DNA of 64,000 bases from Thiocapsa rosea. Its GTDB lineage: Bacteria; Pseudomonadota; Gammaproteobacteria; Chromatiales; Chromatiaceae. Shown here one piece after another: positions 20,413 to 64,000 of this stretch. Every line of letters begins with the position of its first letter. Position 1 is the stretch's first letter. The stretch covers positions 1,968,501 to 2,032,500 of the forward strand of contig NZ_RBXL01000001.1 of assembly GCF_003634315.1 (NCBI RefSeq). Reading direction: 5' to 3'. Position numbers and translations under genes: made by a program. The notes beneath the pieces are model-generated. The model saw only the letters and a list, made by a program, of their open reading frames with translations, did not search any database and was not told the origin of the DNA.

Positions 20413-21354
20413 ATGCCCAAGACCGTCCTCTTCCATCGAGATTTTCGCCGCTTCACCGGCGGGCACCTCAAGGTGTGGCACTATTTCGAGCATGTTCGCT
20501 CCTCGCCGCGGCACCGGGCGCGGATCGTCTTCTCGGACGAGACCTCGTGGGACGCCACCAATCCTTGGTCGACACTGCGCGGCCAAGCGTTGCCGAGCTG
20601 GCGGACGGACGATGCCGATGTGCTGTTTCTGGCCGGCCTGGATTGGGAAGTGCTCGACCCCGCCGAGCGCCGCTCTCCCCCGAAACCCGTGATCAATCTG
20701 ATTCAGCATGTCCGCCATGCCGACCCCGCACAGCCGCTGTACCGTTACCTTGAGCACCCCGCGGTTCGGATCTGCGTCAGCGTGTCGGTGAGCGAGGCCC
20801 TGCGTAGGACCGGCAGGGTCAATGGCCCTCTGATCACCATCCCCAACGGCCTGGAGAGCGCCGAGCTGCCCCCGCCCGTGCCGCAGGATCACCGCACGGT
20901 GGACCTCCTCGTCGTCGGGATCAAGCAGCCGACCCTGGCCGTCGAGATCGCCGATCGGCTGGGGCGCACAAGGCCGGAGATGAGGGTGCAGGTGCTGACC
21001 GAGCCGGTTGCGCGGTCGCTGTTTCTTGAGATGCTCGCCCGTGCGCGCCTCGCGGTCTTGCTGCCGCACCGCACCGAGGGGTTCTATCTGCCGGCCCTGG
21101 AAGGATTCGCGCTCGAGACCCTGACGATCTGTCCGGACTGCGTGGGCAACCGGGGTTTTTGCGTGCCGGACGAGACCTGTCTGATGCCGAACTACACTGT
21201 AGATGCGCTGCTCGGTGCCGTTCAGAAGGCCATGACGTTGTCGTCCGCCGATCGCCACCGCATCTTAAGCCGTGCAAGGACGGTTGCGAACACACACTCG
21301 CTGGGCGAAGAACGGCGAGCCTTTCTCGAGGTGTTGGAGCAGGTGACGCAGTGA
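20413..21354 (+). CDS. Glycosyltransferase (GT-B fold, GT1/GT4-like)
   Basis: A 313-residue protein from ATG 20413 (MPKTVLFHRDFRRFTGGHLKV, a GGH loop typical of the first GT-B strand). Other indications are INLIQHVRHADP, ICVSVSVSEALRRTG, ITIPNGLES, and the C-terminal RTEGFYLPALEGFALETLTICPDC, which matches the donor-binding E-x7-E area. Sugar specificity is unknown. Its stop overlaps the GTG start of the downstream subtilase gene (GTGA), so the two are translationally coupled, which links a glycosyltransferase with an exported protease. Confidence 0.8.
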   Translation: MPKTVLFHRDFRRFTGGHLKVWHYFEHVRSSPRHRARIVFSDETSWDATNPWSTLRGQALPSWRTDDADVLFLAGLDWEVLDPAERRSPPKPVINLIQHVRHADPAQPLYRYLEHPAVRICVSVSVSEALRRTGRVNGPLITIPNGLESAELPPPVPQDHRTVDLLVVGIKQPTLAVEIADRLGRTRPEMRVQVLTEPVARSLFLEMLARARLAVLLPHRTEGFYLPALEGFALETLTICPDCVGNRGFCVPDETCLMPNYTVDALLGAVQKAMTLSSADRHRILSRARTVANTHSLGEERRAFLEVLEQVTQ

Positions 21355-24266
21355 ATCGATCCGTTCTAATGGCCGTGCTGCTCGCCGTCGGCACCTTGCC
21401 GGGCACCCTCTGGGCTGCGCAGGACGCGCCGACGAGGAGTTCGCCGGTGCTCGAGCAGGCCTCGCAGACGGCGGCGCGTCCGGGTCACGATGCGATCCCC
21501 GGGCACTACATCGTCGTGTTCGAGGACGCCGCGTTCAGCGCATCGGCAAGGGCGCGCGGTCGCTTGGCGAACGAGGTCGAGCGTATCGGTCGATCGCTGG
21601 CGCAAGGCTATGGTGCGGCGGTGGAGTCGCGTTGGAGTCATGCCTTGCAGGGCATGTCGGTACGGATGAGCGCACAGGCCGCCGCTGCCTTGGCCAAGGA
21701 TCCCCGGGTCGCGCTCGTCGAGCAGGACACCCGATTCTTCGCCGCCTCTGTTCAGAGTCCCGTTGTTTGGGGGTTGGATCGCATCGATCAGCGCGATCTT
21801 CCGCTGGACAACACCTATCGCTATTCCAACGGCGCCGAGAGCGTGACCGCCTACGTGCTCGACAGCGGGATACGCGTCTCGCACGCGGAGTTCGCCGGGC
21901 GTGCCGTCTGGGGCATCAATGTGGTCGGCGACGGCATCGATACGGATTGCGAAGGTCACGGCACCCACGTCGCCGCAACCCTGGGAGGGGCGACCTACGG
22001 CGTCGCGAAACAGGTCGGCCTCGTCGCCGTGAAGGTGCTGGATTGTGGCGGAGGAGGCTCGGCCTCGGGAATCATCTCGGGCATCGAGTGGATGATCGCG
22101 CATGCGCAGCGTCCCGCAGTCGCCAATCTAAGTGTGGTCGGGCCCAACACGGCGTCGGTCAACCTGGCGGTGGCCCACGCCGTCGATGCCGGGATCACCG
22201 TCGTCGTGGCGGCGGGAAACGATAACGGCGATGCGTGCTTTCGCTCGCCCGCCTCGGCGCCGGACGCGATTACGGTCGGCTCGACGACGAATCTGGATCT
22301 CCGATCGAGCTTCTCGAACTGGGGTGCCTGCCTGGACCTCTTCGCCCCCGGGTCGGCCATCCTCTCCGCATACATCGGGTCGGACTCCGCCACGCGGACC
22401 TTGAACGGGACATCGATGGCAGCCCCGCATGTGGCCGGTGCCGCAGCGCACTATCTGCAGACAGACCCCGGTGCGACACCGGCAACGGTCGCGACCCGGC
22501 TGCTCGAGAATGCGACGGCAGGGAGGGTCGGGGACCCGGGTAGCGGCTCTGCGAATCGGTTGCTGTTCACGGCCTTTTCGACGGATCGGGAGCCATCCCT
22601 CAGCGTCAATCGGCTGGGCTTGGGCCGCGTCTCGAGCCTTCCTGCCGGGATCGATTGCGGAGCGGCCTGCGGCGCGGCCTTCGAGCGCGGCAGCGTCGTC
22701 GACCTCACGGCAACGGCGGGAGTCGGCTTTACCTTCTCCGGCTGGTCCGGGGCGTGCGCGGGCACGGGATCCTGCCGGCTCACGATGGACGGGGATCGCA
22801 CGGCGACCGCAACCTTTGTCGACCCCTACGGATCCACCGAGGTCTTCCCGCCCGGTGGTGTTTGGCCGGACGGATGGACGGGCTCGCCGGATTCCGATGC
22901 GGATTGGACACTGGCCACCTATCCCGTGGCGGAGGGGCACGTCAGTCTTCGCTCAGGCCCCGTCGCTCACGGCGGCCGCAGCAGCATCGAGGTGACCCGT
23001 GCGTTTACGCAGGGCCGCGTGTCCTTCGACTGGACGGTCTCCAGCGAGGCCGACCGTGATGGGGTGAGTTTTTTTGTCGACGGCGTCTTGGTCGGCCGCC
23101 TGTCCGGCTGCGCGAACTGGAGCGCGAGCTGCTGGCGCTCGGTGAATCATCAGCTGCCGGCCGGGACGCACACCTTGACCTGGTCCTACGAGAAGGATGG
23201 ATCCGTCTCTGGCGGTCTGGATGCTGCCTGGCTGGACAATGTCGTACTGCCCCCTGTCGTCGCGCCCGCGCCGGTGCGCCTTGAGGTCACCAAGACCGGC
23301 GGCGGTCGGGTGATCAGCGCGCCGAACGGGATCGACTGCGGTACGCGGTGCAGCGCGGACTTCGGCAGCGACAGCGAGGTCTTGCTGACGGCGGCACCCG
23401 ACCCGGGTTACGCATTCGGTGGATGGAGCGGTTCCTGCGCGGGCAGCGCAGCGACGTGTCGGCTGACGATGTCGACGGCCCGCAGTGTCGGTGCGTCCTT
23501 CAATCGATTGGCCGGTGCGACCTTCGCCGGGCTCTACAGTCCTGCCGCCGGTGCCTTCTATCTGCGCGGGGCGCATAGCGGAGGGGCGGCGGACATCGCC
23601 TTCGGATTCGGGCCGCAGTCCTCTGCCTGGATCCCACTGGCAGGGGATTGGGACGGCGACGGTCGAACCACCGTGGGATTGTACAATCGGGCCGCCGGCA
23701 GCTTTCACTTGCGCAATATGCATGCCGGCGGCTCTTCCGACGTCGTCTTCGGATTCGGGCCGCGGTCGTCGACATGGACGCCGCTCGCGGGAGACTGGAA
23801 CGGTGACGGCCGAACAACGGTCGGGCTTTACAATGCGGTCACGGGTACCTTTTTCCTTCGCAACGCGCTCGCCGGCGGGGCGGCGGATCTGACGTTCCGC
23901 TTCGGGCCGCAGGTATCGACGTGGGTCCCGCTCGCAGGGGACTGGAACGGCGATGGCCGCACGACGGTGGGCCTGTATAATCCGCGCACCGGCACCTTCC
24001 ATCTTCGCAATGCGCACGCGGGCGGGGCGGCGGATCTCACCTTCGGTTTCGGGCCGCCGTCCTCGACTTGGACCCCGCTCGCAGGGGACTGGAACGGCGA
24101 CGGCCGCACCACGGTCGGGCTTTATAATCGGGCGAGCGGGACCTTCTATTTTCGCAATAGCCACAACGGCGGTGCCGCCGATATCACCTTCGGATTCGGC
24201 CCGCGGCCATCGAGCTGGACGGCGCTGACGGGAACCTGGTTCTTGTTCTCGGATACGGGGAAATAA
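21351..24266 (+). CDS. Secreted subtilisin-like protease with C-terminal five-repeat module
   Basis: Start GTG 21351 overlaps the upstream stop; the frame extends further upstream but within the neighbour. The 971-residue protein has a signal peptide (1-22), an I9 inhibitor-like propeptide (about 50-130), and an S8 domain with Asp171 (YVLDSGIRVSH), His203 (GHGTHVAA), Asn290 and Ser355 (NGTSMAAPHVAG), as in proteinase K-type enzymes. Two InlB-type repeats (about 415-485 and 640-720; FSGWSGACAGTGSCRLTM and FGGWSGSCAGSAATCRL) flank an unassigned jelly-roll-like part. The C-terminal 240 residues are five repeats of the GLYNxxxGTFxLRN...GDWNGDGRTTV type. It is probably a calcium-dependent extracellular or surface protease. 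Confidence 0.92.
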   Translation: MNRSVLMAVLLAVGTLPGTLWAAQDAPTRSSPVLEQASQTAARPGHDAIPGHYIVVFEDAAFSASARARGRLANEVERIGRSLAQGYGAAVESRWSHALQGMSVRMSAQAAAALAKDPRVALVEQDTRFFAASVQSPVVWGLDRIDQRDLPLDNTYRYSNGAESVTAYVLDSGIRVSHAEFAGRAVWGINVVGDGIDTDCEGHGTHVAATLGGATYGVAKQVGLVAVKVLDCGGGGSASGIISGIEWMIAHAQRPAVANLSVVGPNTASVNLAVAHAVDAGITVVVAAGNDNGDACFRSPASAPDAITVGSTTNLDLRSSFSNWGACLDLFAPGSAILSAYIGSDSATRTLNGTSMAAPHVAGAAAHYLQTDPGATPATVATRLLENATAGRVGDPGSGSANRLLFTAFSTDREPSLSVNRLGLGRVSSLPAGIDCGAACGAAFERGSVVDLTATAGVGFTFSGWSGACAGTGSCRLTMDGDRTATATFVDPYGSTEVFPPGGVWPDGWTGSPDSDADWTLATYPVAEGHVSLRSGPVAHGGRSSIEVTRAFTQGRVSFDWTVSSEADRDGVSFFVDGVLVGRLSGCANWSASCWRSVNHQLPAGTHTLTWSYEKDGSVSGGLDAAWLDNVVLPPVVAPAPVRLEVTKTGGGRVISAPNGIDCGTRCSADFGSDSEVLLTAAPDPGYAFGGWSGSCAGSAATCRLTMSTARSVGASFNRLAGATFAGLYSPAAGAFYLRGAHSGGAADIAFGFGPQSSAWIPLAGDWDGDGRTTVGLYNRAAGSFHLRNMHAGGSSDVVFGFGPRSSTWTPLAGDWNGDGRTTVGLYNAVTGTFFLRNALAGGAADLTFRFGPQVSTWVPLAGDWNGDGRTTVGLYNPRTGTFHLRNAHAGGAADLTFGFGPPSSTWTPLAGDWNGDGRTTVGLYNRASGTFYFRNSHNGGAADITFGFGPRPSSWTALTGTWFLFSDTGK

Positions 24267-24328
24267 ACTGCCGCAGGCGTATTCTGTCGCCGGCCTTGAT
24301 CATGATTCCGATCACATGGGTGTCTGAC

Positions 24329-24385
24329 TGCGTAGTCAGGCCATCCTGGCCTGACAGCATCAGGGTTCTTAGCCCTGGCTACGCA
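24329..24385. repeat. TGCGTAGTCAGGCC palindromic repeat
   Basis: TGCGTAGTCAGGCCATCCTGGCCTGAC ... CTACGCA forms nested hairpins. A related copy in inverted order is at 44061-44117, where TGCGTAGTCAGGCC is repeated exactly. Confidence 0.65.
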
Positions 24386-24461
24386 CGAGTCGCCAGCCAC
24401 TAGCCGGGGCTATGAAGGCGGTCCCGGTCGACAATCTCGGCGTCGTTCATAAGACTGGCCG

Positions 24462-24540
24462 GTAGGGTGGACGAGCGAGAGCGAAGTCCACCGAACCCCG
24501 CGCCGGCGCTGGTGGACTGCTCTACGCTTGTCCACCCTAC
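24462..24540. repeat. GTAGGGTGGAC long inverted repeat
   Basis: Left arm GTAGGGTGGACGAGCG ... AAGTCCACC, right arm GGTGGACTGC ... TTGTCCACCCTAC. It is structurally like the GTAGGATGGGT elements at 3575-3691 and 57699-57813. With the preceding repeat it fills most of the 423-bp gap before the ABC exporter genes; no gene is seen there. Confidence 0.7.
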
Positions 24541-24689
24541 AGCGTAAAGTCATCGCAGTGGCCGGCGCTACGAGCACCGCCCCAATCTCGGCAGTGCCGC
24601 CGGATCGCGTCTTCGTGACCTGATCGAGCGCTGGACGCGGGGCGGAGAAGAGCCCGCGCGTCAGGCTATTCAATGGAGTACTCATCGGA

Positions 24690-25463
24690 ATGCAGCGCTT
24701 TATCGATCCGCGTATCATCGACCTCGTTGTCTACAAGACCTATGCCGATCTTCGCGCGGAGGCGGCCAAGACCTACATCAATTATCTGTGGTGGGTGATC
24801 GATCCCATCCTCTCGATGTTGGTGTTCTATGTGGTGTTCGGTCTCCTGTTTCAGCGTGACGGAGAGGGCTTCGTTGCGTTTCTGTTGATCGGGCTGGTGG
24901 TCTGGAATTGGTATAAGCAGACGGTCTCGCACGCCGGAAATGCCATTATGACGGGCAAAGGTCTCATGAATCAGGTGCATGTGCCGAAGCTGGTCTTTCC
25001 GACCGTGACCTTGCTGACGGATCTCTCCAAATTCGTCGTCGTTTTCACCTTGCTTCTGCTCTTTCTTTGGCTTTCAGGTTACGCCATCGGGACGGCGTAT
25101 CTGGCCTTGCCGATCGTACTGGCGGTTCAGTTGCTGTTGATCTGCTGCCTGGCATTTCTGTTGGCGGCGGCCGTGCCTTATCTCCCGGATCTTCGGTTTC
25201 TGATCGAGAACCTCCTGCACCTGCAGTTCTTTCTTTCCGGAGTCTTTTTCTCCGTGAAGGATATCCCCGAAGAGTATCATGCGTGGTTCTATTTAAATCC
25301 GATGGCCAGCCTGATTCAGGACTATCGCAGCATCCTTCTGCACGATACTTGGCCTCATTGGGGTCGTCTGGCACTCATTGCCTTCTTTTCACTCATGGCC
25401 GGCGCCTTCGCCATCGCATGGATTCGGCGCCTGGATCGTGATTATCCGCGAGTGGTGACTTGA
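24690..25463 (+). CDS. wzm: ABC-2 type polysaccharide/LPS exporter permease (Wzm-like)
   Basis: A 257-residue protein with about six membrane segments and the ABC-2 polysaccharide exporter pattern: DLVVYKTYADLRAEAAKTYINYLWWVIDP (amphipathic start; quoted region residues 11-39, key YLWWVIDP), MTGKGLMNQVHVPKLVFP, FFLSGVFFSVKDIP and WFYLNPMASLIQDYRSILL. Together with the adjacent ATPase it should move a lipid-linked O-antigen, capsule or teichoic-like polymer across the inner membrane. The next gene starts three bases after its stop. Confidence 0.9.
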   Translation: MQRFIDPRIIDLVVYKTYADLRAEAAKTYINYLWWVIDPILSMLVFYVVFGLLFQRDGEGFVAFLLIGLVVWNWYKQTVSHAGNAIMTGKGLMNQVHVPKLVFPTVTLLTDLSKFVVVFTLLLLFLWLSGYAIGTAYLALPIVLAVQLLLICCLAFLLAAAVPYLPDLRFLIENLLHLQFFLSGVFFSVKDIPEEYHAWFYLNPMASLIQDYRSILLHDTWPHWGRLALIAFFSLMAGAFAIAWIRRLDRDYPRVVT

Positions 25464-25465
25464 GT

Positions 25466-26212
25466 ATGCATCCAGTCAATGCGTCACCATTGCTGTCCTT
25501 GGACGGGGTTGGCTTGGCCTTTCGCAAGGGCGGCTTGCGCATCGGGCCTCGTCATCGCTTTTGGGTCTTGAAGGATATCTGCTTCGAGGTCTATCCGGGC
25601 GAGACGCTTGGCGTGATCGGGCGCAACGCCGCCGGCAAAAGTACACTCCTGAGACTCATCGCCGGCATCATCAAGCACGACCGGGGCACATTCATCAACC
25701 ACGGCTACAGTGTTGCGCTGCTGTCGCTGCAAACCGGCTTCGTTCCCTATCTGACGGGGCGTGAAAACGCGATTCTCAGCGGCATCCTACTTGGCCTCAG
25801 GCGCTCCGAGGTCGAAGCGAAAATGGAGGCGATCGTCGACTTCTCGGAGCTCGGCGACTTCATCGATCAACCCTTGGGGACCTATTCCTCCGGGATGCGG
25901 GCACGGTTGGGATTCTCGGTCGCCTATCAGGTTGAACCCGACATCCTGTTGATCGACGAAACGCTCGGCGTGGGTGATGAGGAGTTCAAAGTGAAATCGA
26001 CACAGGCGATGCACGAGCGGATCCGGTCCGATAAGACCATCATCCTCGTGTCTCACATGCCGGGGACCATCCGCGAGCTCTGCGATCGGGCCGTTTGGAT
26101 CGAAGAAGGCGTGACCCGTGCCGTCGGCGATGTTGCCGAGGTCACGCATGCCTATCACGACGAGATCAGTCGACGTCGCCTGACCGCGGACGCATCGATC
26201 CGGGCACTATGA
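25466..26212 (+). CDS. wzt: ABC exporter ATPase for polysaccharide (Wzt/KpsT-like)
   Basis: A 248-residue ATPase from ATG 25466. Walker A is GRNAAGKST (52-60), the signature is TYSSGMRARLGFS, Walker B is DILLIDETLGVGDEEF, and the H-loop is ILVSHMPGT. The opening VLKDICFEVYPGETLGVIG is characteristic of polysaccharide exporters. It lacks the C-terminal carbohydrate-binding extension found in long Wzt proteins, so substrate recognition probably resembles the short KpsT/TagH class. It is paired with the permease at 24690-25463. Confidence 0.92.
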   Translation: MHPVNASPLLSLDGVGLAFRKGGLRIGPRHRFWVLKDICFEVYPGETLGVIGRNAAGKSTLLRLIAGIIKHDRGTFINHGYSVALLSLQTGFVPYLTGRENAILSGILLGLRRSEVEAKMEAIVDFSELGDFIDQPLGTYSSGMRARLGFSVAYQVEPDILLIDETLGVGDEEFKVKSTQAMHERIRSDKTIILVSHMPGTIRELCDRAVWIEEGVTRAVGDVAEVTHAYHDEISRRRLTADASIRAL

Positions 26213-26697: not shown

Positions 26698-28968
26698 ATG
26701 AGCTCAGGAAGCGAGAGTGCGGCTCAAAGACGGTCTGCATGGACGAGTATCGGCTGGAAACTCGGCCTGTTGGCGAGTTTGGTTGCTTGGCAAATCATGA
26801 CTGGGTCGGCGGTTCTGGCCGCCGAGCAGGACGAATCCTCCCCGGGCTGGGGCAACATCGATGCCGATCTGATGGTCGTCGACTGCCCATTCAGCGCCGA
26901 AGCGAGACCGGCCGCGGCGCGCGTAGTCTTGCAGATCATCGACGGCGAGCTGCATAAATGGGAGGAGCATGATTTGGGCGAGGGTCGCGTTTGCCTCGTG
27001 CAGGTCCTGCCGGACGAGCGTCTCCTGTCGATCTCGCATGCGCTTGATTTATTGGAGCGTTCCGCCAGTTGGACCGAACAAGAACCGAGCTTCGATGCGA
27101 TGGAGATCCTCTCGCCTGACGATCCCGGTTTGACGGTGCCTCCGGCAGTTCCTCCCTCGGCTCCGACCGGTCCGCTGCCCGAGCCTGACGGAATCGATAC
27201 CGATGGACCCCCCGGTTGGCCGCGTGGCGACAACGACGACGACGGCACGAATCCATATAGCTTTGCTTATATGGATGACGTTGTCCCGGAGGTTGTTATT
27301 GGTACTGATGATCGCGTGCGCGTCGTGACGAAGACACAGTACCCCTGGTGGGTGATCGGCTATCAGGGTCATACCTTTTCCGACAGCTCTTCATGGCGCT
27401 GCACCGGTTTCGTCGTCGGACCGCAAATGGCGATGACCAACGGCCACTGTGTTTACGATTCGGCCAGAGGTGGTTATGCCGCGTCCATGAGTCTCGCGCC
27501 GGCGCAGTCTCAAGCATCGACCGGAGCAGCAGTCGTTCGCCCGTATGGAAACGAGAGTGCGTGCCACTGGCGTACAAATACGCAGTATATAGACACCGCA
27601 GACGTCCAGTATGATTATGCGGCGATGTTCTTTCGGAGCTCTTGGAGCCTGAAAGGCATCAGTACCTTTATGCCGCTCGTCTTCGATGTCAGCCCAACGA
27701 CCATCAATACCGCAGGGTATCCCGGCACTGCTCAGGGCGCCAGTACGTTCGACATGTGGCGTGCGTTCGACGGCACGAACGTCCAGGTTGTCGATCGGAT
27801 CCTTCGCTATACGGCGGACACGAGTGGAGGTCAGAGCGGAAGCCCGGTATGGCTGCTGCAAGGCGAAAACCGTCGGGTCGTCACTGTTCATTCATTCGGA
27901 AACGCCACCGCGGGCTATAACGGCGGGCCCCGCTTGGTTTCGCAGAATAGAGCAGTTATCGAGAACTGGTTGGCAAACCAAGCGGCCTATTGTCCGCCGC
28001 TCACGCGCACGGTCACGGCAACCGCAGGTACGGGCGGCACCGTGACACCGACCTCGCGAACCGTGAATCAGGGCAGCACGGCCAGTTTCACGGTCACGGC
28101 CAACACCGGCTACACGCGCAACAACGCGGTCGGCGGCACCTGCCCGGCAGGCGGCTGGAGCGGGAACACCTACACGACCGGAGCCGTGACGGCAAACTGC
28201 GCGGTGAGCTTCAGCTTCACCGCGATCGTCGGATCCGGAATGAGCATTGGGCTCTTCAATCCTGCGACGAGCACGTTCTATTTGCGGAATGCCAATAGTT
28301 CCGGACCGGCCAACACCGTCTTCGGCTTTGGTCCTCCCGGGCGGGGCTGGAGGCCGCTGACGGGGGACTGGAACGGGAACGGCCAGACGACGGTCGGCCT
28401 GTACAACCCGGTGACAAGCTCGTTTTACCTCCGCAACGCCAACAGCGGGGGAGCTGCGGAGGTGAGCTTCGGCTTCGGGCCTGCGGGGCGCGGGTGGACG
28501 CCCTTGACCGGTGATTGGAACGGCAATGGCCGGACCACGGTCGGTCTTTACAATCCGGCGGCGAGCACTTTCTATCTCCGCAATGCCAACAGCGGTGGAG
28601 CTGCGGACGTCAGCTTCAGCTTCGGACCTGGCGGGCGCGGCTGGCTGCCGTTGACCGGTGATTGGAATGGCAACGGTCTGACGACGATCGGTCTGTACAA
28701 TCCGGGCACGAGCACCTTCTATCTCCGCAATGCCAACAGCGGGGGAGCTGCGGATATCAGCTTCGGCTTCGGGCCTGCCGGACGCGGTTGGTTGCCGTTG
28801 ACCGGTGACTGGAACGGCAACGGCCAGACGACGATCGGTCTGTTTAATCCGATGACGAGCACCTTCTATCTCCGCAATGCAAACAGCGGCGGTGCGGCCG
28901 ATGTGGTGTTCGGCTTCGGTCCCGGAGGTGCAGGTTGGGCGGCGTTGACGGGGAAGTGGCTCCCGTAA
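26698..28968 (+). CDS. Secreted V8/trypsin-like serine protease with C-terminal five-repeat module
   Basis: A 756-residue protein from ATG 26698 after GAGGTG. A long signal region (hydrophobic 20-41, ending VLAA) is followed by a propeptide with a Pro-rich linker (145-175), then an S1B/V8-like domain with His250 (MAMTNGHCVY), Asp306 (VQYDYAAMFF) and Ser380 (SGGQSGSPVW). A Cys-poor InlB-type repeat (about 436-518, GTGGTVTPTSRTVNQGS) leads to five repeats of the SxGLxNPxTSTFYLRNANSGG type (521-756), ending AALTGKWLP. It should be an extracellular endopeptidase; specificity for Glu cannot be confirmed. It is one of seven proteins in the window sharing the repeat module. Confidence 0.9.
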   Translation: MSSGSESAAQRRSAWTSIGWKLGLLASLVAWQIMTGSAVLAAEQDESSPGWGNIDADLMVVDCPFSAEARPAAARVVLQIIDGELHKWEEHDLGEGRVCLVQVLPDERLLSISHALDLLERSASWTEQEPSFDAMEILSPDDPGLTVPPAVPPSAPTGPLPEPDGIDTDGPPGWPRGDNDDDGTNPYSFAYMDDVVPEVVIGTDDRVRVVTKTQYPWWVIGYQGHTFSDSSSWRCTGFVVGPQMAMTNGHCVYDSARGGYAASMSLAPAQSQASTGAAVVRPYGNESACHWRTNTQYIDTADVQYDYAAMFFRSSWSLKGISTFMPLVFDVSPTTINTAGYPGTAQGASTFDMWRAFDGTNVQVVDRILRYTADTSGGQSGSPVWLLQGENRRVVTVHSFGNATAGYNGGPRLVSQNRAVIENWLANQAAYCPPLTRTVTATAGTGGTVTPTSRTVNQGSTASFTVTANTGYTRNNAVGGTCPAGGWSGNTYTTGAVTANCAVSFSFTAIVGSGMSIGLFNPATSTFYLRNANSSGPANTVFGFGPPGRGWRPLTGDWNGNGQTTVGLYNPVTSSFYLRNANSGGAAEVSFGFGPAGRGWTPLTGDWNGNGRTTVGLYNPAASTFYLRNANSGGAADVSFSFGPGGRGWLPLTGDWNGNGLTTIGLYNPGTSTFYLRNANSGGAADISFGFGPAGRGWLPLTGDWNGNGQTTIGLFNPMTSTFYLRNANSGGAADVVFGFGPGGAGWAALTGKWLP

Positions 28969-28972
28969 ATAT

Positions 28973-43286: not shown

Positions 43287-43526
43287 GCGACCCTTGCCCG
43301 GCGGGTCGCCACCCGCCGGGCACCCTCCCTACAGGCGCCCGACCCGGGCGCGTCGAACACCGCCGCGACGCACTCCACACACCGCCTTCGCGCTCCTCGG
43401 GCTCCTCGCACTCCTCCACCTGCCGACACTGCGCCACCGGGGTGATCAGTGCGGGAAAACCGCGAGCATTCCGCGCGAAACAATTCGGGAATCGGCCGGT
43501 GAAATAAAGCGAGCGACAACAGCACC

Positions 43527-47844: not shown

Positions 47845-47865
47845 GATATTAAAAAATATATCGTT

Positions 47866-48863: not shown

Positions 48864-49318
48864 CAGCACCTCACGATAAATTTCAGAGTTTCTTGGGAAA
48901 TCTCCAGGTCCGCGCTGGCGTCGTCCACAGAGTCCGATCCCCTGGGAGGATACCGATAGCCGGACTGGTGCATTCGCCGACCAAGCGATTACTAACGCTA
49001 AAGTTTGTAGAGCCAGTCAGGGAGTCACAGTAGTCTTTCTATAACAGCAGGCCCCGATTATTGTATGTATGCCGACCTTGGTTTGCATAAGTGCAGCCAT
49101 ATCCGCGATCGCAATGGCCGGTCGTCAAGGCCGTTCTATATGATCACGACCGCAGCGGACGACCCCTTGCCGCTCCTGCACAAGACAGCGGCCAAACCAG
49201 CGGCAAAACCCCGGCCATCGGGGGGGGCGGCTAGCGTGCATCGAACAGCGAGCCCCATCGCCCGCGCCGCTGCACCGGGCTGCTTGCACGTTTGAATGCA
49301 CCACAAGCACCCGGCACT
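48864..49318. other. Intergenic region without recognised gene
   Basis: 455 bp between two minus-strand genes. No frame with a ribosome binding site and family resemblance was found. It should contain the promoter of the sulfotransferase gene; AACGCTAAAGTTTG and CTATAACAGC segments are A+T-rich, but no promoter is assigned. Confidence 0.35.
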
Positions 49319-54289: not shown

Positions 54290-54409
54290 AGTCCGACCTT
54301 GGAGGCGATGGCGTGTCTTCAGAGGGCCGGTAGTTTAGCACCTCGGCCCTTGGGCGGGTCGTCTATCCAGCGCCCGATGGGTGTATGGTCCGGGCCGCGG
54401 CGGACGGAT

Positions 54410-55429: not shown

Positions 55430-57441
55430 GCCTGCCCCTGGATGTTCATCAGGCCGTGAAAGTACTCCAGCGTTTCCAGTGCTTCTCGCCGATGGCAGAA
55501 TCTCTGTGCGGTCTCCCTGCCGGCCCGGGTCATGTCGGCTCTTCGATCGGGATCATTCAGCAACGCGAGGATGGCCTCGGTCAATCGCGTCGGCTCGCGC
55601 GGCGGGGCCAACAGGGCATTCTCGCCGTGGCGCGCATATTCGTTCACGCCGCCCACGTCGGTCAGCACGCATGCGGCGCCGCAGGCCATGGCTTCCAGGC
55701 CGCAACGACCGAAGCCTTGAAAATCGGAGCCGTCCAGGAAGACATCCGAGGACGAATAAAGCCGGGCCAGACGATCCTGATCGGCAATGACGCCCTCGTC
55801 TTTGTATTCAAACGGAACGGCGTAGCGCCGCAGGGTGCTGTCGCCGAACAGCCGAATCTCGACGTCGGGGCGCGAAGCCTTCACCTGCCGAAGTGCCTCG
55901 ATCGTTGCCTCGAAACCGCGATGCGGCGTCAGCGGGCGCGCCATGGCCGAGACGGTCGGAGGTCCGGGTACCGTGTCGCGCGGATAGAAGCGCCGCAAGT
56001 CCATTCCGAGCGAGATCTTGTGCGTTTCGTACCCGCGTGCGGCCATCATCTGCGCCAACCAGTCGGACATGACGATCCGCTGCCGCAACATCCCGAAGGT
56101 CGCCTCGACCTCTGCGCGCTTGCTCTGCCGGGTCGCCGGGAAAAACCAAGGCTCGTAGTCCTGAAGAAAATAGACCGCGACCTGTGCTCGTCCGGCATCC
56201 AGAACGGCCTTCGCCCAAGGCGCGGTCGTCCAGAGGGTCGCGACCACGACATCCGTCGGCGGGAACTGCTCGATCATCTCGCGTGCGTCGCGATAGACGA
56301 TCGGCCGCGTGTAAAGTTGACTCCAGTCGTGCACAAGCGGGTCTTCGAACAGGGTGGCGATGCGTGCCTCGACACCCTGGAGAATCAGCGCGTTGACGAG
56401 TTGGATGACCGACAACACGCCACCGGCGACCAGCAAGCGGTCCAGGATGTAGGTCACCCGAAGGCGCCCGGGGCGCGTTACCCTACCTATCGCGTCGGCC
56501 TCGGGGACAGGGATGCGCGCCCGAGGCAGGGCCAACAGACCCCGCACCGCCGCACGTGCTGCGGCGACGGGCTGACGGCTGCGGACTGCGCTCAGCACGG
56601 CACGGCCTGTTTGCCAGATGACGGGTTTGATCACTGCGCGCGTTCGATGCGGGATCAGCGAACGCACCTGTCGGAGCGGATCGGCAGTCCGAAACGCCGC
56701 AAACTGTCGGCGATACTCACGAGACCAGCGTGCGTCGAAGATGCGCCGATTCGCCAGGTAACGCGCTTCGCGTCCGCGACCGAAGGTGCCCGAGCCCCGG
56801 TGGTAGACATAAACGTTCTCAGCGACCACGGTACGATATCCGCGTGTAGTCAATCGCATGCAAAGATCCGATTCCTCGCAATAGCCGCGTCCGTATACGG
56901 GGTCAAGAAAGCCTTCCTTCTTCAAGACGCTGCGACGCAACAACATGCAGAAGCCCTCGCCCGTGACCACGTCCGCACAACGGGGCGCGCCCTCGCTCAG
57001 GAGTGCGTCCATCCCGAGGAAGTTGGCACCCGGAAACATCGGCAAGGCGAGGTGTGCAGCGTGATTGGTAAGGGGGTTGACCGAGGCGATTCGTTCGTCT
57101 GCGGCGGCGCACGCGAGAAGGCGCTCCAGCCATCCCGGAGTGACGACGACGTCACTGTTCAACAAGAGAAGGTAAGGCGCGTCGCCGGCCTCGTAACCCC
57201 GGATGCAGGACTGGACGAAGCCGAGGTTCTCGGGGTTGCGAATCAGGCTCACGGGGTCGTGCTGCCGTGCGACCTGCTCGAGAAATGCCGACGTGAAGGT
57301 GTCGCTGGCGTCGTCGACAATGATCAGGCGGTAGGCGACTTCTGCTGTGAAGTCGATGACTGAAGCGATGCACTCCGCGGCATAGGTGAGCCCGTTGTAC
57401 ACGGGCATGACGATGTCGCAGGTCGTTTTCGGTGGGGACAT
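55426..57441 (-). CDS. Bifunctional GT2-GT4 glycosyltransferase
   Basis: ATG 57441 is chosen since it places CDIVMPVYNG at the N-terminus; an in-frame TTG 93 bases upstream has no ribosome binding site. The 671-residue protein has a GT2 domain (1-260; RLIIVDDASD, LLLNSDVVVTPGWLERLL, GRGYCEESDLCMRL), a linker, and a GT4 domain (about 330-671; RVTYILDRLLVAGGVLSVIQL, ISLGMDLRRFYP, VFLDGSDFQGFGRCGLEAMACGAACVL). The GT4 half resembles the C-terminal domain of the giant protein at 49319-54289. Fusion of two transferases suggests addition of two consecutive sugars. The next gene overlaps by four bases. Confidence 0.9.
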   Translation of the reverse strand: MSPPKTTCDIVMPVYNGLTYAAECIASVIDFTAEVAYRLIIVDDASDTFTSAFLEQVARQHDPVSLIRNPENLGFVQSCIRGYEAGDAPYLLLLNSDVVVTPGWLERLLACAAADERIASVNPLTNHAAHLALPMFPGANFLGMDALLSEGAPRCADVVTGEGFCMLLRRSVLKKEGFLDPVYGRGYCEESDLCMRLTTRGYRTVVAENVYVYHRGSGTFGRGREARYLANRRIFDARWSREYRRQFAAFRTADPLRQVRSLIPHRTRAVIKPVIWQTGRAVLSAVRSRQPVAAARAAVRGLLALPRARIPVPEADAIGRVTRPGRLRVTYILDRLLVAGGVLSVIQLVNALILQGVEARIATLFEDPLVHDWSQLYTRPIVYRDAREMIEQFPPTDVVVATLWTTAPWAKAVLDAGRAQVAVYFLQDYEPWFFPATRQSKRAEVEATFGMLRQRIVMSDWLAQMMAARGYETHKISLGMDLRRFYPRDTVPGPPTVSAMARPLTPHRGFEATIEALRQVKASRPDVEIRLFGDSTLRRYAVPFEYKDEGVIADQDRLARLYSSSDVFLDGSDFQGFGRCGLEAMACGAACVLTDVGGVNEYARHGENALLAPPREPTRLTEAILALLNDPDRRADMTRAGRETAQRFCHRREALETLEYFHGLMNIQGQA

Positions 57442-57698
57442 GTTGATCGGAGCGAAATCTGCTTGGTTTGGAAAGCCGCAGTCCGGCTGGTCCAGGACGC
57501 GAGGGATCAAAGGCGCAATCGGCAACGGATTCAAAATGGTCTACGACGTCGCTAGGTCGCACGCGGGTGAGTACCGTTTCACGTGTAGGCGGCATGCACT
57601 CGTCGGCCGGCTTCGAGATACCGGCGACAGCAGTGCTGACTTGATCCCTATGAGGCGATTTTCGGGAATAAGGAACAATTCAAAAACAACCTAAAACA

Positions 57699-58020: not shown

Positions 58021-60315
58021 CTACCTCTTTACGTTGTTCTTCAATCCTTCCCCGAAGTCTTGTATCCGCCGTGTCAAGCCGCTCGCGACCTCATGGACGA
58101 AGACGGCGGCCTCGTCGTCGGGCTCGCCTTCGGCCTCGTCGTCGGGCTCGCCTTCGGCCAGGTTTCCGGCATCGGAGAAGAAGACCACCCAATCGCCGTC
58201 GGCACTCAGGCGTGCGCGGTGACTTGCTCCGTCGGCGGCCTCGCCGAAGCTGCTCGTGCTGACCCGCAGGGTGTGACTGAGCGCCGGTTCGTGCACAAAT
58301 ACGTCGGCGACTCCGTTCGTGTCCTCTGCGACGAGATTGCTCGCCTCGGAGACAAACACGATCCGCATGCCGGCCCCATCGAGATGCGGTCCGAAGCTCG
58401 CGCCGTTGCCTGCACGACCTTCCGAGTCGCGGCTGATCAAGGCGAGGGTCTCGAGGAGCGGGTCATAGCCGTACACATCGGTTACCCCGTTTCTGTCCTC
58501 CGCCACCAACGCCGAGTCGGTCGCGAAGACGATCCAGCCCTCGTCCGCGCCGGAGTGCGCGTCCCATACCTCCGCCTGTGCCTCGGTCAAGAGCGCCTGC
58601 AGCGCGGTCGGCAGCTCGGATCGTTCAAGGCCGCGCGAGGGCGACAGGGTCGCATCCTTCGTCAGGGAGTCCGCTATCTCAAGCAGGGCCGGCACGGTGC
58701 CGCTGCTCGCGGTGCCTGTGGGTTGCCAGATTCCGCTCAACGGCGTCCAAGTCGAGGGTGCCGGGCCGAAGCGGAATTGCACGTCCGCGGCGCCGCCGGA
58801 GAAACCGTTGCGCAGGTAGTAGGTTCCCGTGCTTGGGTCGTAGAGGCCAACGCTGCTGCGCCCGTCGCCGTCCCAATCTCCGCTCAAGGGCATCCAGTTG
58901 CGCCCCGCGGGACCGAAGCGGAAGCTCATGTCGGCCGCGCCGCCGCCGAGACTGTTGTGCAGATGGAAGCTCCCCGTCGCCGGGTCATAGAGGCCGACGG
59001 TCGTGCGCCCGTTGCCGTTCCAATCCCCGGTCAAGGGGATCCAGTTGCGTCCCGCCGGACCGAACCGGAAGCTTGCATCCGCGGCCCCGCCAGCGAGCGC
59101 GTTGCGCAGCATGAAGCTCCCCGTAGTCGCATCGTAGAGTCCGATGGTGCTGCGTCCGTTGCCGTTCCAGTCCCCGCTCAGTGGACTTAGATTACGCCCG
59201 GTCGGACCGAACCGGAAGCTCGCATCGGAGGCTCCGCTGCCGTGACTGTCGCGCAGGTCAAACCACCCGAATGTCGTGTGATAGAGGCCAACCGTGCTTT
59301 GCCCGTTCCCGTTCCAATCCCCGGAAATGGGTCTCGACGCCGACCCGGTTAGGCCGAATCGGAAGAACATGTCGGCGGCTCCGCCGCCGTGCCGATTGCG
59401 CAGGTAGAAGATTCCCGACTGCGGATTATGCAGCCCGACGCCGTCGAACGGCGCTCCGGACAGCAGCGTCACGGCCGAAATTCGGTTGGCGGATGGTTCC
59501 GACACAAAGAGGCGCTTGCCGACCCGGTCATAAGCGAGTCCCGTCGGTGATTCCAAACCCGTCGCGACCACGACCGATTGACCAAGCGGCGTGATCTTCG
59601 TTATCCGACCTGTCCCGCCGTCCGCCACATAGAGATTGTTCAGTTCATCCTCGGCAAGGCCATTGGGTTGAACGAAACCGGAAAGGATGGTGGAGCAGGA
59701 ACCATTCGAAGGGTTGATGTTGAAGACAGAATTCCCGGAGGTTCCGGCGATGCCGGCGACGCCGGGGCGATATTCGAGAAAGCGGAAACTACTGCAGGTG
59801 ACTGCGTGGTCATAATCAGTAAGCGTGTTCGGTCGGAAGTTGTTGATCGTCAGTTTGCCGAGATACGGACGCCTGAATCCGCTATGGTTGCCGAAAAATA
59901 GCCGACTTGAGCCGGTGCCCGGTGATTCGACCGTGATGCCTGTGCCCATAGCGTTCGTGCTATAAACCCAACCATAAGTTGCTGATACCCCGCCACCCGC
60001 GGCGAGCCGAAAGATATCGTCGCTCGCCGCCATCGGTGCATAAAGATTCCCCGCTGCGTCAAAGACAATGTCCATATCCGGATTGAATGCCTCCGTCACC
60101 GTTGCCACTGTGCCCGCCGTTCCGTTTGCTTGGATCGGGATCGACCAGACCTTCCCGCTCGCCCCGCTGTTGACATAGAGCTCCCGATTCCAGGGATGCA
60201 CGGCAATGCCGGTCGGCGTTGCCAGCCCGTCTTGGAAGGTTGTGACTCCGGCGGAGATGGGGTGTGCCGTGCAGAGCAGGAGGGCGGTTGTCCAACCGAA
60301 AAGCCATCGCGTCAT
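58021..60315 (-). CDS. Exported NHL/SMP-30-type propeller with five-repeat module and PD40-like tail
   Basis: ATG 60315 is chosen (GGAAGA upstream, signal peptide 1-22 ending HPISA). The 764-residue protein has an NHL/SMP-30-like propeller (about 25-290; ATPTGIAVHPWNRELYVNS, PNGLAEDELNNLYVADGG, PTGLAYDRVGKRLFVSE), five repeats (about 291-530; TVGLYDPSTGTYYLRN, GDWNGNGRTT) and a C-terminal WD40/PD40-like part (about 570-764; VFVHEPALSHTLRVSTSSFGE). No enzyme residues are evident. Here the five-repeat module is internal, not terminal. The tail is shared with the papain-like protein upstream. A 24-bp duplication gives EGEPDDEA twice. Confidence 0.85.
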   Translation of the reverse strand: MTRWLFGWTTALLLCTAHPISAGVTTFQDGLATPTGIAVHPWNRELYVNSGASGKVWSIPIQANGTAGTVATVTEAFNPDMDIVFDAAGNLYAPMAASDDIFRLAAGGGVSATYGWVYSTNAMGTGITVESPGTGSSRLFFGNHSGFRRPYLGKLTINNFRPNTLTDYDHAVTCSSFRFLEYRPGVAGIAGTSGNSVFNINPSNGSCSTILSGFVQPNGLAEDELNNLYVADGGTGRITKITPLGQSVVVATGLESPTGLAYDRVGKRLFVSEPSANRISAVTLLSGAPFDGVGLHNPQSGIFYLRNRHGGGAADMFFRFGLTGSASRPISGDWNGNGQSTVGLYHTTFGWFDLRDSHGSGASDASFRFGPTGRNLSPLSGDWNGNGRSTIGLYDATTGSFMLRNALAGGAADASFRFGPAGRNWIPLTGDWNGNGRTTVGLYDPATGSFHLHNSLGGGAADMSFRFGPAGRNWMPLSGDWDGDGRSSVGLYDPSTGTYYLRNGFSGGAADVQFRFGPAPSTWTPLSGIWQPTGTASSGTVPALLEIADSLTKDATLSPSRGLERSELPTALQALLTEAQAEVWDAHSGADEGWIVFATDSALVAEDRNGVTDVYGYDPLLETLALISRDSEGRAGNGASFGPHLDGAGMRIVFVSEASNLVAEDTNGVADVFVHEPALSHTLRVSTSSFGEAADGASHRARLSADGDWVVFFSDAGNLAEGEPDDEAEGEPDDEAAVFVHEVASGLTRRIQDFGEGLKNNVKR
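58108..58155 (-). repeat. 24-bp in-frame tandem duplication
   Basis: Two exact copies of the 24-bp unit GGCCTCGTCGTCGGGCTCGC+CTTC at 58108-58131 and 58132-58155 encode EGEPDDEA twice in an acidic loop of the PD40-like tail. Confidence 0.8.
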
Positions 60316-60935: not shown

Positions 60936-63900
60936 TCAACGCAGAGTCGGTGCCAACGGGTTGGCCAGAACATGCGCGTCCGCGCCCGCTGCAGTTGCGT
61001 CGAGCAGGGCCGCTGCATCCCAAAGCCGCAAGGTCCGCCCGTCGGGAGAGAAGTCCAGGCGAGGGCTCAACCCATCCCAAGTCCTCGGCCAGGCCAGCCG
61101 TGCACGCGCGGAACCGTCAAACGTCTCGACCCAGATCGCCGTCGGGGCGGCATCAAGTGCCGGCCGCGCCAGATAGGCCAGAAAACGGCCGTCGTCACTG
61201 AGCGCGGGGTCGCTCTGCACTGCCTCCGGCGTCGCCGCCACGACCCGGGTCTCCCCATGCTCGGCGGCATAGACATGGATGCGAGAGGCGTTGTCGCCTT
61301 CCGTGCGCGTGTAGGCGATGCGCAGCGGCGGATGCGCCAACGTCGGCTGTGTCGCCGCCATGGTGCTCTCGTGCCCGGATTCATCAAGACTCACCCGGTC
61401 CGTTAGACCGCTCTCCAGCTTGTGCACGAACACGTCGGTCACCCCGTTGGCATCCCCCTCCACCAGTGTATCGGCCGCCGAGGCGTAGACCACCCAGGCT
61501 CCATCCGCGCTCAGCCGGGCTGTCTGGCTCGTCGCGTGCGCCGCCTCGCCGAAGCTGCTCTCGCTGACCCGCAGGGTCAAGCCGCTCTCCAGCTCATGCA
61601 CGAACACGTCGACCACGCCATTGGTATCGCCCGCCACGAGGTTTGTGGCTGCAGACAAGAACACCACCCTCGTGCCGGCCCCGTCCAGATGCGGGCTGTG
61701 GCTCGGTCCGTCGGCGCTCTTTCCGTCGGCGCCCCAACTGAGCAGACTGAGCCGATCTGTTCGCGGCGCGTAGGCATAGACGTCCATCACTCCGTTGACG
61801 TCCTCGCTCAGCAGCGTGGCCGCAGTGGCGAAGACGACGGTCACGCCGTCGGTGTCGGTGTACACATCTCGGATCGTCGCCTCCGCTGCGAGCAGCCGAC
61901 TCCTTAGGCCAGCAGGAAGCTGCGACGCTTTGGTGACCCGAGCGGGCATGACGCTTACCCACTCTTCTGTGACGCCGGCGCCCACGGCCACATCCATGTC
62001 GGTCCAGGTGGGCACCGCGCCGATCGTCGTCCGCGTCCAACGCCCGCTCAGCGGCATCCAGCTCGAAGGTGCCGGACCAAAGCGGAAGGTCACGTCCGCT
62101 GCGCCGCCGGATAGGCCGTTGCGCAGATGGAAGCTGCCGGTTGCCGGGTCATATAGGCCAATCGTGTGGCGTCCGTTGCCATTCCAGTCTCCGGCCAACG
62201 GGACCCATGCGCGTCCAGCAGGGCCAAAGCGGAAGCTCGCGTCCGCGGCGCCGCCCCCGTGGCTGTTGCGCAAATAGAAGGCGCCGGTCGCGGGGTCATA
62301 AAGTCCAACAGTGCTTATCCCGTCGCCGCTCCAATCTCCGGCCAAGGGCAGCCAGTTGCGCCCCGCCGGGCCGAACCGGAAGCTGTGATGCGCGGTGCCT
62401 CCACTCAAGCTGTTGCGTAGGTAGAAGCCTCCGGTCGCGGGATCGTACAAACCCACCGTGTCGCTCCCGTTGCCGTCCCAGTCACCGCTCAGCGCACGCC
62501 AATTGCGCCCGCCCGGGCCAAAACCGAAGCTGACGTCCGCCGCGCCGCCGCCGTGACTGTTGCGCAGGTAGAAGCGTCCTGCGCCCGGATCGTAGAGCCC
62601 TACCGTACTCTGTCCGTTGCTGTTCCAATCCCCGCTCAAGGCTCGCCACCCTCGACCGGCCGGGCCGAAACCGAAGCTCACATCGGCACTGCCGGCGCTG
62701 TTGCTGTTGCGCAGGAAGAAGGCACCTACAGCCGGGTTATAGAGCCCGGGGCCCGAGCCGTTGCTGGCTGTGCCCGCGAAGTTTGCTTGTAGGCTTGCGC
62801 CCGAGTAAGCACTATAACCCTGCAACAGGATGTGGAAGCGACCGCCCACAGGGCTGGGGATTTGACAGGTCTCCGCGTTTCCGGTCGCCCATGAGCGACA
62901 ATCAAACGTCGAGGTTGTCGGTGCAGTGCCTCGCCGAACATAGAGATCCATGTCGCCGGTACCGCCCCAGGTCCGCACGCTAAGGCTGTTTTGAGCGCTC
63001 GGTACATCGATGCAGTAGAGTCGTTCAGACCCGCTCGCCCCGCTCAATGCCGAGACCACTTGTCCGTTGCCGATGACCTGACAGCCGGATGTCCCGGCCC
63101 AAGTGTAATTTTGCCCGCTTTGGGTTGCCGTCACGTTCGTGTAACTGCGGCTCGCAGGACTGAAGGTACCGCCGCTTGTTGTGGCGGGCGTACAGGTACC
63201 GCTCCAGCCTTGAGTGACCGAGATACTGTAATCGCCCGAGGAATTTGTCGTGCCGGTTCCGCCGCTGTTGTTACAGCTCACCGTGACACCGGCCAAGCCC
63301 GCACCCGTATCCGAACGCGTCACACGACCGGACAAGGTTGGATTGGTGCCGCCGACCGGGACAAGGCTGAAATTTGCCATCCCGAAACCAAGATCATTCT
63401 GGTGTCCGCTATAGGCGATCCAAAAGGTGCCGTCGCCGTTGGGTCCGTTGGTGGCGCCCCAGCTGTTCTTACAAAGAAAAGCGCCTTTGGAGTCGTCCCA
63501 ACCGATCAGTAGGACGGCGTGCCCCCCTTCGAATGACCCCCCTGTATTCCGATAAACGGATCCCGCGCTCGCATTCGACCAATATGAGGTGAAATCGCTA
63601 TAAACCACATAGCGCCAGTAGCTCGGACCGTCATTGTAGAGCGACGCCTTGAAGGCCGTCGGCGTTTGCTGAACAGTATGGAAAGCTGTGACACGGTAAT
63701 TCATCTGAGACGCGCTTGGCTCATGGCAAGCCGTCGTATCCGAGGCTGTATATGGAAACACGCTTTCCGGGAGCGGGCCTTTATTTTCCCAATAACGTAA
63801 TGAGGTCGCGCTTCCGCCGCGGCATCCGGACATTGCCGTATTGCAGGAGACCTGTTGTTGCTCGGATAAGTCGCTGGTACCTCGGCCCATCTTGAGCAAC

Positions 63901-64000
63901 CGCGACTCAATCGAGCCGGCTGCCGCGAAGGCCCAGCATGAACCACAATTGCCTTGGTGCTTGGGCGTTGTCACGATTCCGGAGCTCCGGGCATCGTATG
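60936..64000 (-). CDS. Papain-like (C1A) protease with PPC, five-repeat and PD40-like modules, N-terminus outside window
   Basis: The frame is open through the right edge, so the signal peptide and propeptide are missing. The visible start, YDARSSGIVTTPKHQGNCGSCWAF, is the mature N-terminus of papain-type enzymes with the catalytic Cys in GSCWAF; the catalytic His is in GGHAVLLIGWDD and Asn in NSWGATNG. Next come a carboxypeptidase-regulatory-like domain (LSGRVTRSDTGAGLAGVTV), a PPC-type domain (SLSVRTWGGTGDMDLYVR), five repeats (62030-62745; GLYDPATGAFYLRNSHGGG) and a PD40-like tail (60936-61990; DVFVHELESGLTLRVSESSFGE). It is probably a secreted cysteine protease. Confidence 0.9.
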   Translation of the reverse strand, partial: YDARSSGIVTTPKHQGNCGSCWAFAAAGSIESRLLKMGRGTSDLSEQQQVSCNTAMSGCRGGSATSLRYWENKGPLPESVFPYTASDTTACHEPSASQMNYRVTAFHTVQQTPTAFKASLYNDGPSYWRYVVYSDFTSYWSNASAGSVYRNTGGSFEGGHAVLLIGWDDSKGAFLCKNSWGATNGPNGDGTFWIAYSGHQNDLGFGMANFSLVPVGGTNPTLSGRVTRSDTGAGLAGVTVSCNNSGGTGTTNSSGDYSISVTQGWSGTCTPATTSGGTFSPASRSYTNVTATQSGQNYTWAGTSGCQVIGNGQVVSALSGASGSERLYCIDVPSAQNSLSVRTWGGTGDMDLYVRRGTAPTTSTFDCRSWATGNAETCQIPSPVGGRFHILLQGYSAYSGASLQANFAGTASNGSGPGLYNPAVGAFFLRNSNSAGSADVSFGFGPAGRGWRALSGDWNSNGQSTVGLYDPGAGRFYLRNSHGGGAADVSFGFGPGGRNWRALSGDWDGNGSDTVGLYDPATGGFYLRNSLSGGTAHHSFRFGPAGRNWLPLAGDWSGDGISTVGLYDPATGAFYLRNSHGGGAADASFRFGPAGRAWVPLAGDWNGNGRHTIGLYDPATGSFHLRNGLSGGAADVTFRFGPAPSSWMPLSGRWTRTTIGAVPTWTDMDVAVGAGVTEEWVSVMPARVTKASQLPAGLRSRLLAAEATIRDVYTDTDGVTVVFATAATLLSEDVNGVMDVYAYAPRTDRLSLLSWGADGKSADGPSHSPHLDGAGTRVVFLSAATNLVAGDTNGVVDVFVHELESGLTLRVSESSFGEAAHATSQTARLSADGAWVVYASAADTLVEGDANGVTDVFVHKLESGLTDRVSLDESGHESTMAATQPTLAHPPLRIAYTRTEGDNASRIHVYAAEHGETRVVAATPEAVQSDPALSDDGRFLAYLARPALDAAPTAIWVETFDGSARARLAWPRTWDGLSPRLDFSPDGRTLRLWDAAALLDATAAGADAHVLANPLAPTLR

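What the first reader, a model, noticed from the sequence alone, without database searches (positions are those of the whole stretch)
21351..64000. A five-repeat module, always five copies, shared by seven otherwise unrelated exported proteins
Seen: the genes at 21351, 26698, 29844, 33774, 44245, 58021 and 60936 each contain tandem repeats of about 45 residues (core GLYNPxTGTFYLRN, a GG..DV.F.FGP segment, W.PLTGDWNGDGRTT). I counted five copies in every one. GDWNGDGRTT has the DxDGDG spacing of Ca-binding loops in FG-GAP-like repeats. Inference: a fixed number argues for a closed fold, a five-bladed Ca-binding beta-propeller, serving as a common binding, anchoring or secretion module. Several copies end in an incomplete unit (TPLTGDWVR), as when a propeller is closed by strand exchange.
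Basis: partly seen in the sequence, partly recalled or inferred. Interest (0 to 1): 0.85.

Follow-up and report, generated by a model that had tools for sequence, protein, structure and literature searches.

The report
Five-bladed propeller on secreted proteins
Seven secreted-type proteins in this stretch carry the same module of exactly five repeats, very probably a closed five-bladed, metal-binding and perhaps sugar-binding propeller, which is a variant of a known protein family whose repeat number is unusually steady.

Summary
In detail: all seven window genes carry five tandem units of exactly 49 residues. The genome has 11 such modules, all within 54 kb. Of 244 complete arrays from many phyla, 186 measure 4.5-5.25 units, and with hand reading 212 are five. 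Exceptions: a sister family with six (14 arrays), one other six, six fours, two threes, one eight, two tens (at least one looks like 2x5), two unclear, four broken. Of 14 arrays that start and end inside a unit, nine still total five, but one reads as four. The metal-loop motif lies in 27 of 28 junctions inside the window modules and after none of the seven last units, as expected if the ring closes there. Coevolution hints at antiparallel four-stranded blades (P=0.038); a direct test of ring closure found nothing. The module shows VCBS-propeller hallmarks: the DxDxDG loop and, in 20 of 35 units, the GW motif that helps form sugar pockets in relatives. Best reading: a closed five-bladed, lectin-like targeting propeller. 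New variant of a known kind; ligand unknown.

The parts
23526..24251 (+). five-unit module of the subtilase gene at 21351 (gene 21351-24266)
28246..28965 (+). five-unit module of the trypsin-like gene 26698-28968; all four loops DWNGNG, GW in all five units
32673..33392 (+). five-unit module of the DUF7948/SBBP gene 29844-33395
38214..38933 (+). five-unit module of the DUF7948/SBBP + alpha/beta-hydrolase gene 33774-38936
46762..47481 (+). five-unit module of the subtilase + nidogen-like gene 44245-47484
58714..59439 (-). five-unit module, internal, of the SGL/NHL-repeat gene 58021-60513
62025..62750 (-). five-unit module, internal, of the papain-like gene at 60936 (runs past the window end)
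19395..26209 (+). polysaccharide-type genes beside the module genes: sulfotransferase 19395, glycosyltransferase-like 20413 (below Pfam cut-off), ABC-2 exporter membrane part 24690 and ATPase 25460
48015..57534 (-). polysaccharide-type genes between module genes: sulfotransferase 48015, large sulfotransferase/glycosyltransferase-like protein 49319 (named by eye), glycosyltransferases 54413 and 55429

Best explanation
The module is a closed five-bladed beta-propeller of the VCBS/FG-GAP supercluster used as an add-on targeting domain, most likely lectin-like, on secreted enzymes and other exported proteins. Each 49-residue unit gives four strands: W-x-PLTGDW (strand A), the metal loop DxDxDG (loop AB), TTVGLYNP (B), TFYLRN (C), a Gly-bearing turn and ADVTFRFG (D), then GW (loop DA'). 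In the window proteins the module starts at strand B of blade 1 and ends with strand A of that same blade, so the last W-x-PLTG-x-W strand should pair with the first VGLYNP strand: a Velcro closure with four metal loops and one open junction. Shown: five copies, exact period, wide conservation of five, mid-unit starts that still total five, loop pattern. Inferred: fold, closure, metal binding. Guessed from relatives: the GW loops form sugar pockets, up to five per ring.
For: Five units in 11 of 11 own-genome modules. 186 of 244 complete arrays measure 4.5-5.25 units, 113 of 160 among those found with a one-unit query, which does not favour five; in the subset from 24 genomes (plus viral contigs) not reached through the five-unit query, 43 of 71 entries are five by a strict two-half rule. 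Nine of 14 arrays that start and end inside a unit total 4.79-5.06 units. Ten-unit array L186 has lost the metal motif just after unit 5. Metal motif in 389 of 450 inner junctions but in 3 of the 55 closing junctions that could be read (116 arrays; in 52 the protein ends there). Coevolution: columns 40-44 of the metal loop strongest, antiparallel ladder i+j=35, and pairing across the loop, 34 to 4 of the next unit. The one PDB match below 1e-3 of the unit profile is a secreted protein with six such loops (9oee_A, E=6.2e-6). VCBS hallmark motifs as described in PMC8023676 (counts).
Against: No structure was obtained. Coevolution between unit 5 and unit 1 was not detected, and the B-C ladder did not survive cross-validation on 97 arrays; internal A-B junctions are only slightly above other pairs there. 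The ladder reaches only P=0.038. Arrays of 3, 4 and 8 units exist, and one mid-unit-start array, L205, reads as four. In the 9oee_A match no single stretch passes on its own at E=1, it covers only the loop, and the five-unit profile and a phmmer search of one module find nothing convincing in the PDB (best E 0.16 and 1.4). Pfam FG-GAP_3 stays below its cut-off in all seven (best 26.1 against 26.9 bits). GW is rare outside long-unit arrays (44% of units at spacing 49 or more, 7% at 47-48, 5% below). No ligand evidence of any kind.
Confidence: 0.64

Rival explanations
1. The module is a closed five-bladed propeller but serves as a stabilising cap, protein docking surface or surface-retention element rather than binding sugars.
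For: It is joined to very different domains (47 Pfam families match in 54 relatives) and often sits at the very C-terminus (85 of 139 arrays within 20 residues). The five-bladed propeller of the adhesin BapP was proposed as a possible anchor (PMC12153261, passages read).
Against: VCBS relatives with known ligands often bind carbohydrates (PMC8023676, PMC13274773), and the window units keep the W of the GW loop (33 of 35; GW in 20).
Confidence: 0.3
2. The repeats form an open solenoid or stalk, and five is an accident of common descent.
For: Arrays of 3, 4 and 8 units exist; the 11 own modules are close paralogues and not independent; ring-closure coupling was not seen.
Against: Five holds in Acidobacteriota, Planctomycetota, Chloroflexota, Actinomycetota, Thermodesulfobacteriota and archaea; nine of 14 mid-unit-start arrays restore five; coupling ladders are antiparallel, with no parallel register beyond the one-unit diagonal expected from homology.
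Confidence: 0.07
3. Five units are an incomplete ring that is closed by blades of a neighbouring domain or by oligomerisation.
For: Smock et al. (PMC4735018, passages read) obtained pentameric rings from single motifs; some neighbours are themselves propeller-type repeats (SBBP, NHL, weakly PD40).
Against: Partner domains differ completely between proteins while the number stays five.
Confidence: 0.06

Closest known systems
VCBS beta-propeller supercluster (Pereira and Lupas 2021, PMC8023676; Pfam PF13517 FG-GAP_3)
   Same: DxDxDG in loop AB, conserved G in loop CD, GW in loop DA', secreted multidomain proteins
   Different: below the Pfam cut-off; five blades nearly fixed, whereas PMC9218822 gives a median of six and variable numbers for highly repetitive VCBS-like propellers
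Tachylectin-2
   Same: five blades of about 47 residues, GW loop
   Different: tachylectin-like propellers lack DxDxDG (PMC8023676); no Pfam tachylectin match among hits up to E=1
Umbrella-toxin UmbA lectin propellers (PMC13274773)
   Same: secreted, C-terminal 5- and 6-bladed propellers, behind a trypsin-like domain as in 26698; UmbA4 (six blades, calcium-type loops) solved with a bound surface glycan
   Different: homology seen here only through the loop motif (9oee_A, which I take to be UmbA4 by inference); UmbB and UmbC partners were not looked for
Alpha-integrin FG-GAP propeller
   Same: metal loop and an FG...GLYNP pattern resembling FG-GAP
   Different: seven blades (PMC8023676) of about 60 residues (recalled)

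Membership tests
VCBS beta-propeller supercluster | DxDxDG motif in loop AB | tested here: met
   27 of 28 inner window junctions as D-x-[DN]-x-[DN]-G; 15 of 28 with D at the fifth position
VCBS beta-propeller supercluster | GW in loop DA' | tested here: met
   W in 33 of 35, GW in 20 of 35 window units; rare in short-unit relatives
VCBS beta-propeller supercluster | G and W in loop CD | tested here: inconclusive
   G19 in 35 of 35; no conserved W there (columns 15-20)
VCBS beta-propeller supercluster | Pfam PF13517 above gathering score | tested here: not met
   best 26.1 against 26.9 bits, E=1.4e-5, in 21351; FG-GAP_3 at E<=1e-5 in 8 of 54 relatives
VCBS beta-propeller supercluster | four-stranded meander blades in a closed ring | tested here: inconclusive
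   coevolution ladder P=0.038, not confirmed in cross-validation, ring-closure coupling not seen, structure tool off
Tachylectin-2 | five blades of 47-residue units | tested here: met
   five units of 49 in the window; mostly 45-51 in relatives; that units are blades is inferred
Tachylectin-2 | absence of DxDxDG and sequence match to tachylectins | tested here: not met
UmbA lectins of umbrella particles | trypsin-like domain plus lectin, with UmbB/UmbC partners | not tested
   26698 has a trypsin-like domain plus the module; partners not searched

The most novel reading that the evidence does not exclude
One locus encodes both a sulfated surface polysaccharide and a set of eleven secreted proteins that all carry a pentavalent self-lectin, so that proteases, a lipase-like and other proteins are held in the cell's own coat: a secretome addressed by a five-bladed propeller.
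Probability: 0.15. Interest if true: 0.75.

Novelty: new variant of a known kind. Interest (0 to 1): 0.5.

Why it matters
Published work on highly repetitive VCBS-like propellers reports a median of six blades and, in one lineage, forms with 3, 4, 6 and 9 (PMC9218822; passages, part of one section). This lineage keeps five in most arrays across phyla, has a sister that keeps six, and holds arrays with shifted start points that still total five. That makes it a good natural set for asking what fixes blade number, and it combines the calcium loop of integrin and PVL propellers with the five-fold ring of tachylectin. Eleven copies on different secreted proteins in one locus also give a clear target for ligand screening.

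Tried and rejected
No model exists, so no fold search was made.

Coevolution of the closing junction (unit 5 to unit 1): no excess over other pairs. Under cross-validation even most internal pairs are weak, so the test has little power. It is reported as negative, not as support. The in-sample z-scores are inflated and not used.

Is the polysaccharide neighbourhood general? I scanned 82 of the 141 flanking ORFs listed (module-bearing ORFs dropped, others dropped for size). In the 25 of 173 families shown, glycosyltransferase families match 2 each, as do RmlD, epimerase and UDP-sugar dehydrogenase families. No background was run; I see no clear general link.

Export signal: rejected as necessary.

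Counts that I replaced: one search split arrays unevenly between query sets because of de-duplication, so searches are used. An earlier reading counted L205 as five and L157 and L184 as four; the sequences read as four, five and five. A first list of mid-unit-start arrays asked for at least six hits, which would hide short ones; lifts that rule. Because of L205 and the weak PDB match I lowered the main confidence from 0.66 to 0.64 and raised the open-array rival from 0.06 to 0.07. The tree holds only two own modules and is used only for breadth.

Full report
The observation. The period is 49 residues in 28 of 28 spacings, without an insertion or deletion. Mean unit identity is about 70% within a protein and 63-66% between proteins. 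The other six modules are 57-82% identical to the module of 44245. In five proteins the module ends the protein or nearly so; in 58021 and 60936 it is internal.

The genome. The window is contig 1, bases 1,968,501-2,032,500, of a 6.11-Mb genome. A profile of the seven modules finds 11 modules there, all between bases 1,992,026 and 2,046,064; all 11 have five units. Of 38 genomes searched as relatives, own included, only the own genome and one same-genus genome match at E<=1e-5. With a one-unit profile 1 of 299 genomes drawn from the phylum matches, the own one. The module is therefore rare in this lineage and was probably gained and spread locally (inference). The best DNA alignment of 44245 with 29844 and with 33774 starts 27 bases inside the module of 44245 and runs to the stop codon at 83-85% identity, so unrelated front parts share this cassette. 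The partner domains in the 11 genes are subtilase (three), trypsin-like, DUF7948/SBBP (two, one with an alpha/beta hydrolase), papain-like, SGL/NHL, InhA-like MAM, beta-helix, and one without a match.

How fixed is five? With a five-unit query the first count gave 95 of 107 arrays at five, but such a query disfavours shorter arrays. I therefore searched with a one-unit profile in seven sets of genomes (at E<=1e-5: 16 of 16, 7 of 246, 13 of 246 and 22 of 247 genomes match; at E<=1e-10: 9 of 301, 1 of 194 and 10 of 199), scanned viral contigs (3 loci) and fetched further stretches. The 16 and the centres of the other sets are genomes first reached through the five-unit query. Over 408 loci there are 252 non-redundant arrays; 8 are cut by a contig or locus end, leaving 244. 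Of these 186 measure 4.5-5.25 units: 11 of 11 own, 61 of 71 from the five-unit query, 113 of 160 from one-unit searches, 1 of 2 from the same-genus relative; 177 of the 186 have five of both unit halves. The other 58 I sorted by reading: 23 are five with divergent end units or one spurious or partial extra hit; 3 are five split by an insertion; 15 have six; 6 have four (L054, L077, L205, L257, L342, L394); 2 are unclear, four or five (L297, L325); 2 have three recognisable units (L213, L384); 1 has eight (L288); 2 have ten; 4 are broken by frameshifts. So 212 of 244 read as five. In the subset from 24 genomes (plus viral contigs) not reached through the five-unit query, 43 of 71 entries are five by a strict rule. 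The sixes are, but for one, a distinct sister family with the core VFRPSTGxWY; with a model of its own 13 of 13 arrays read as six.

Evidence for a ring. First, shifted start points: 14 complete arrays start and end inside a unit. Nine total 4.79-5.06 units; one totals about ten; one, of the sister family, about six; two measure 4.2-4.3 and read as five with a divergent first unit; one (L205) reads as four. Three of the nine are in one organism, Thiobaca trueperi, and two in Peribacteraceae bins, so independent events are fewer. Second, of the two ten-unit arrays, L186 has lost the metal motif just after unit five, as at a domain border; L065 (the same array as L258) shows no such break. Third, the metal motif stands in 389 of 450 inner junctions but in 3 of the 55 closing junctions that could be read (of 116 arrays; in 52 the protein ends there). 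Fourth, coevolution over 1,026 units (782 adjacent pairs, effective number about 474): the strongest coupling is inside the metal loop, columns 40-44; a ladder with i+j=35 joins TFYLRN to ADVTFRFG; columns 34, 33 and 32 of one unit couple with 4 and 5 of the next. This is the order A-loop-B-C-D of a propeller blade. The ladder reaches P=0.038 against column shuffles. Against this, cross-validation on 97 arrays in 46 clusters did not confirm the B-C ladder, internal junctions were only slightly above other pairs, and the pair unit 5 to unit 1 showed no excess. I treat coevolution as suggestive for the blade and uninformative for closure.

What it belongs to. Pfam gives only FG-GAP_3 below its cut-off, NCBIfam nothing convincing for the module. 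In the PDB the one-unit profile has one match below 1e-3, 9oee_A, 'Secreted esterase', E=6.2e-6 summed over loop motifs, with no stretch passing E=1 on its own; the five-unit profile has none (best 0.16). The sister profile matches 9oee_A at 6e-10 with six loops and 8w20_C weakly. I believe, from memory and the loop count, that 9oee is the UmbA4 lectin of umbrella toxins; the paper text held here does not print the code. Pereira and Lupas (PMC8023676; parts 1 and 2 of 3 read) describe a VCBS supercluster of propellers by DxDxDG in loop AB, G and W in loop CD and GW in loop DA', the last helping to form the sugar pocket in tachylectin-2 and PVL; [quoted passage not shown] The window units have the first in 27 of 28 junctions, the G in 35 of 35, and W at the DA' position in 33 of 35, preceded by G in 20. 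They thus join the five-fold ring and GW of tachylectin-2 with the metal loop that tachylectins lack. In PMC13274773 (passages) secreted UmbA proteins carry 5- and 6-bladed propeller lectins, one six-bladed form solved with a bound surface glycan. Smock et al. (PMC4735018, passages) describe FG-GAP-like single motifs in bacteria and 47-residue motifs that form five-bladed lectins. The strings GDWDGDG and GDWNGDG occur in no paper of the library.

Likely function. In 54 relatives (of 61 listed; one duplicate and six others dropped) 47 Pfam families match, the first 25 shown, FG-GAP itself included: proteases, lipases, a phosphatase, sugar dehydrogenases, beta-helix and others. 85 of 139 arrays end within 20 residues of the protein's C-terminus; 32 have more than 100 residues after them. 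In the same genus, distant relatives of the 44245 subtilase (33-44% identity over part of the protease) occur in five of ten other genomes, none of which has the module. Of three C-terminal stretches tested, one matches F5/8 type C, a galactose-binding-like fold, next to an InlB repeat (this protein runs on beyond what I saw), one fibronectin repeats, one nothing. This fits an exchangeable targeting domain. The window's module genes lie among sulfotransferases, glycosyltransferases and an ABC-2 exporter, which suggests the cell's own polysaccharide as a ligand; the flanks of relatives give no clear support for a general link, so this stays a local hint.

Verdict. It is a variant of a described supercluster, not a new kind. 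What is unusual is the near-fixed five, the sister fixed at six, and the eleven-fold use in one locus.

Noticed in passing
   Followed up: partly
L288 / L349 (G1224, contig 86): An eight-unit array with 47-residue units whose metal loops are degenerate (GDWTGKG); whether it folds as one ring is unknown.
   Followed up: no
L384 (G333, contig 2): Three units follow FG-GAP-type sequence in frame, joined at the metal loop, as if the two propeller types recombined there (FG-GAP named by eye).
   Followed up: no
L205 (G603, contig 32): An array that starts at strand A and ends at strand D reads as four complete units, an exception to five.
   Followed up: partly
L117, L118, L119 (viral contigs): The repeat occurs in three contigs classed as viral; L119 has six units of a variant with a longer unit.
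   Followed up: no
window 49319-54289, minus strand: A 1,656-residue protein with sulfotransferase-like start, coiled-coil tandem repeats (LRATEQALAERTDQLHRREQDFAEQ) and glycosyltransferase-like parts; named by eye.
   Followed up: no
window 40892-43767: A transposase (rve, Mu-transpos_C) and an AAA-like gene (by eye; no Pfam match for the ORF at 43132) sit in the middle of the module-gene cluster.
   Followed up: partly
L013 (G005, contig 30): A broken copy of a related module in a same-genus genome, with in-frame stops.
   Followed up: no
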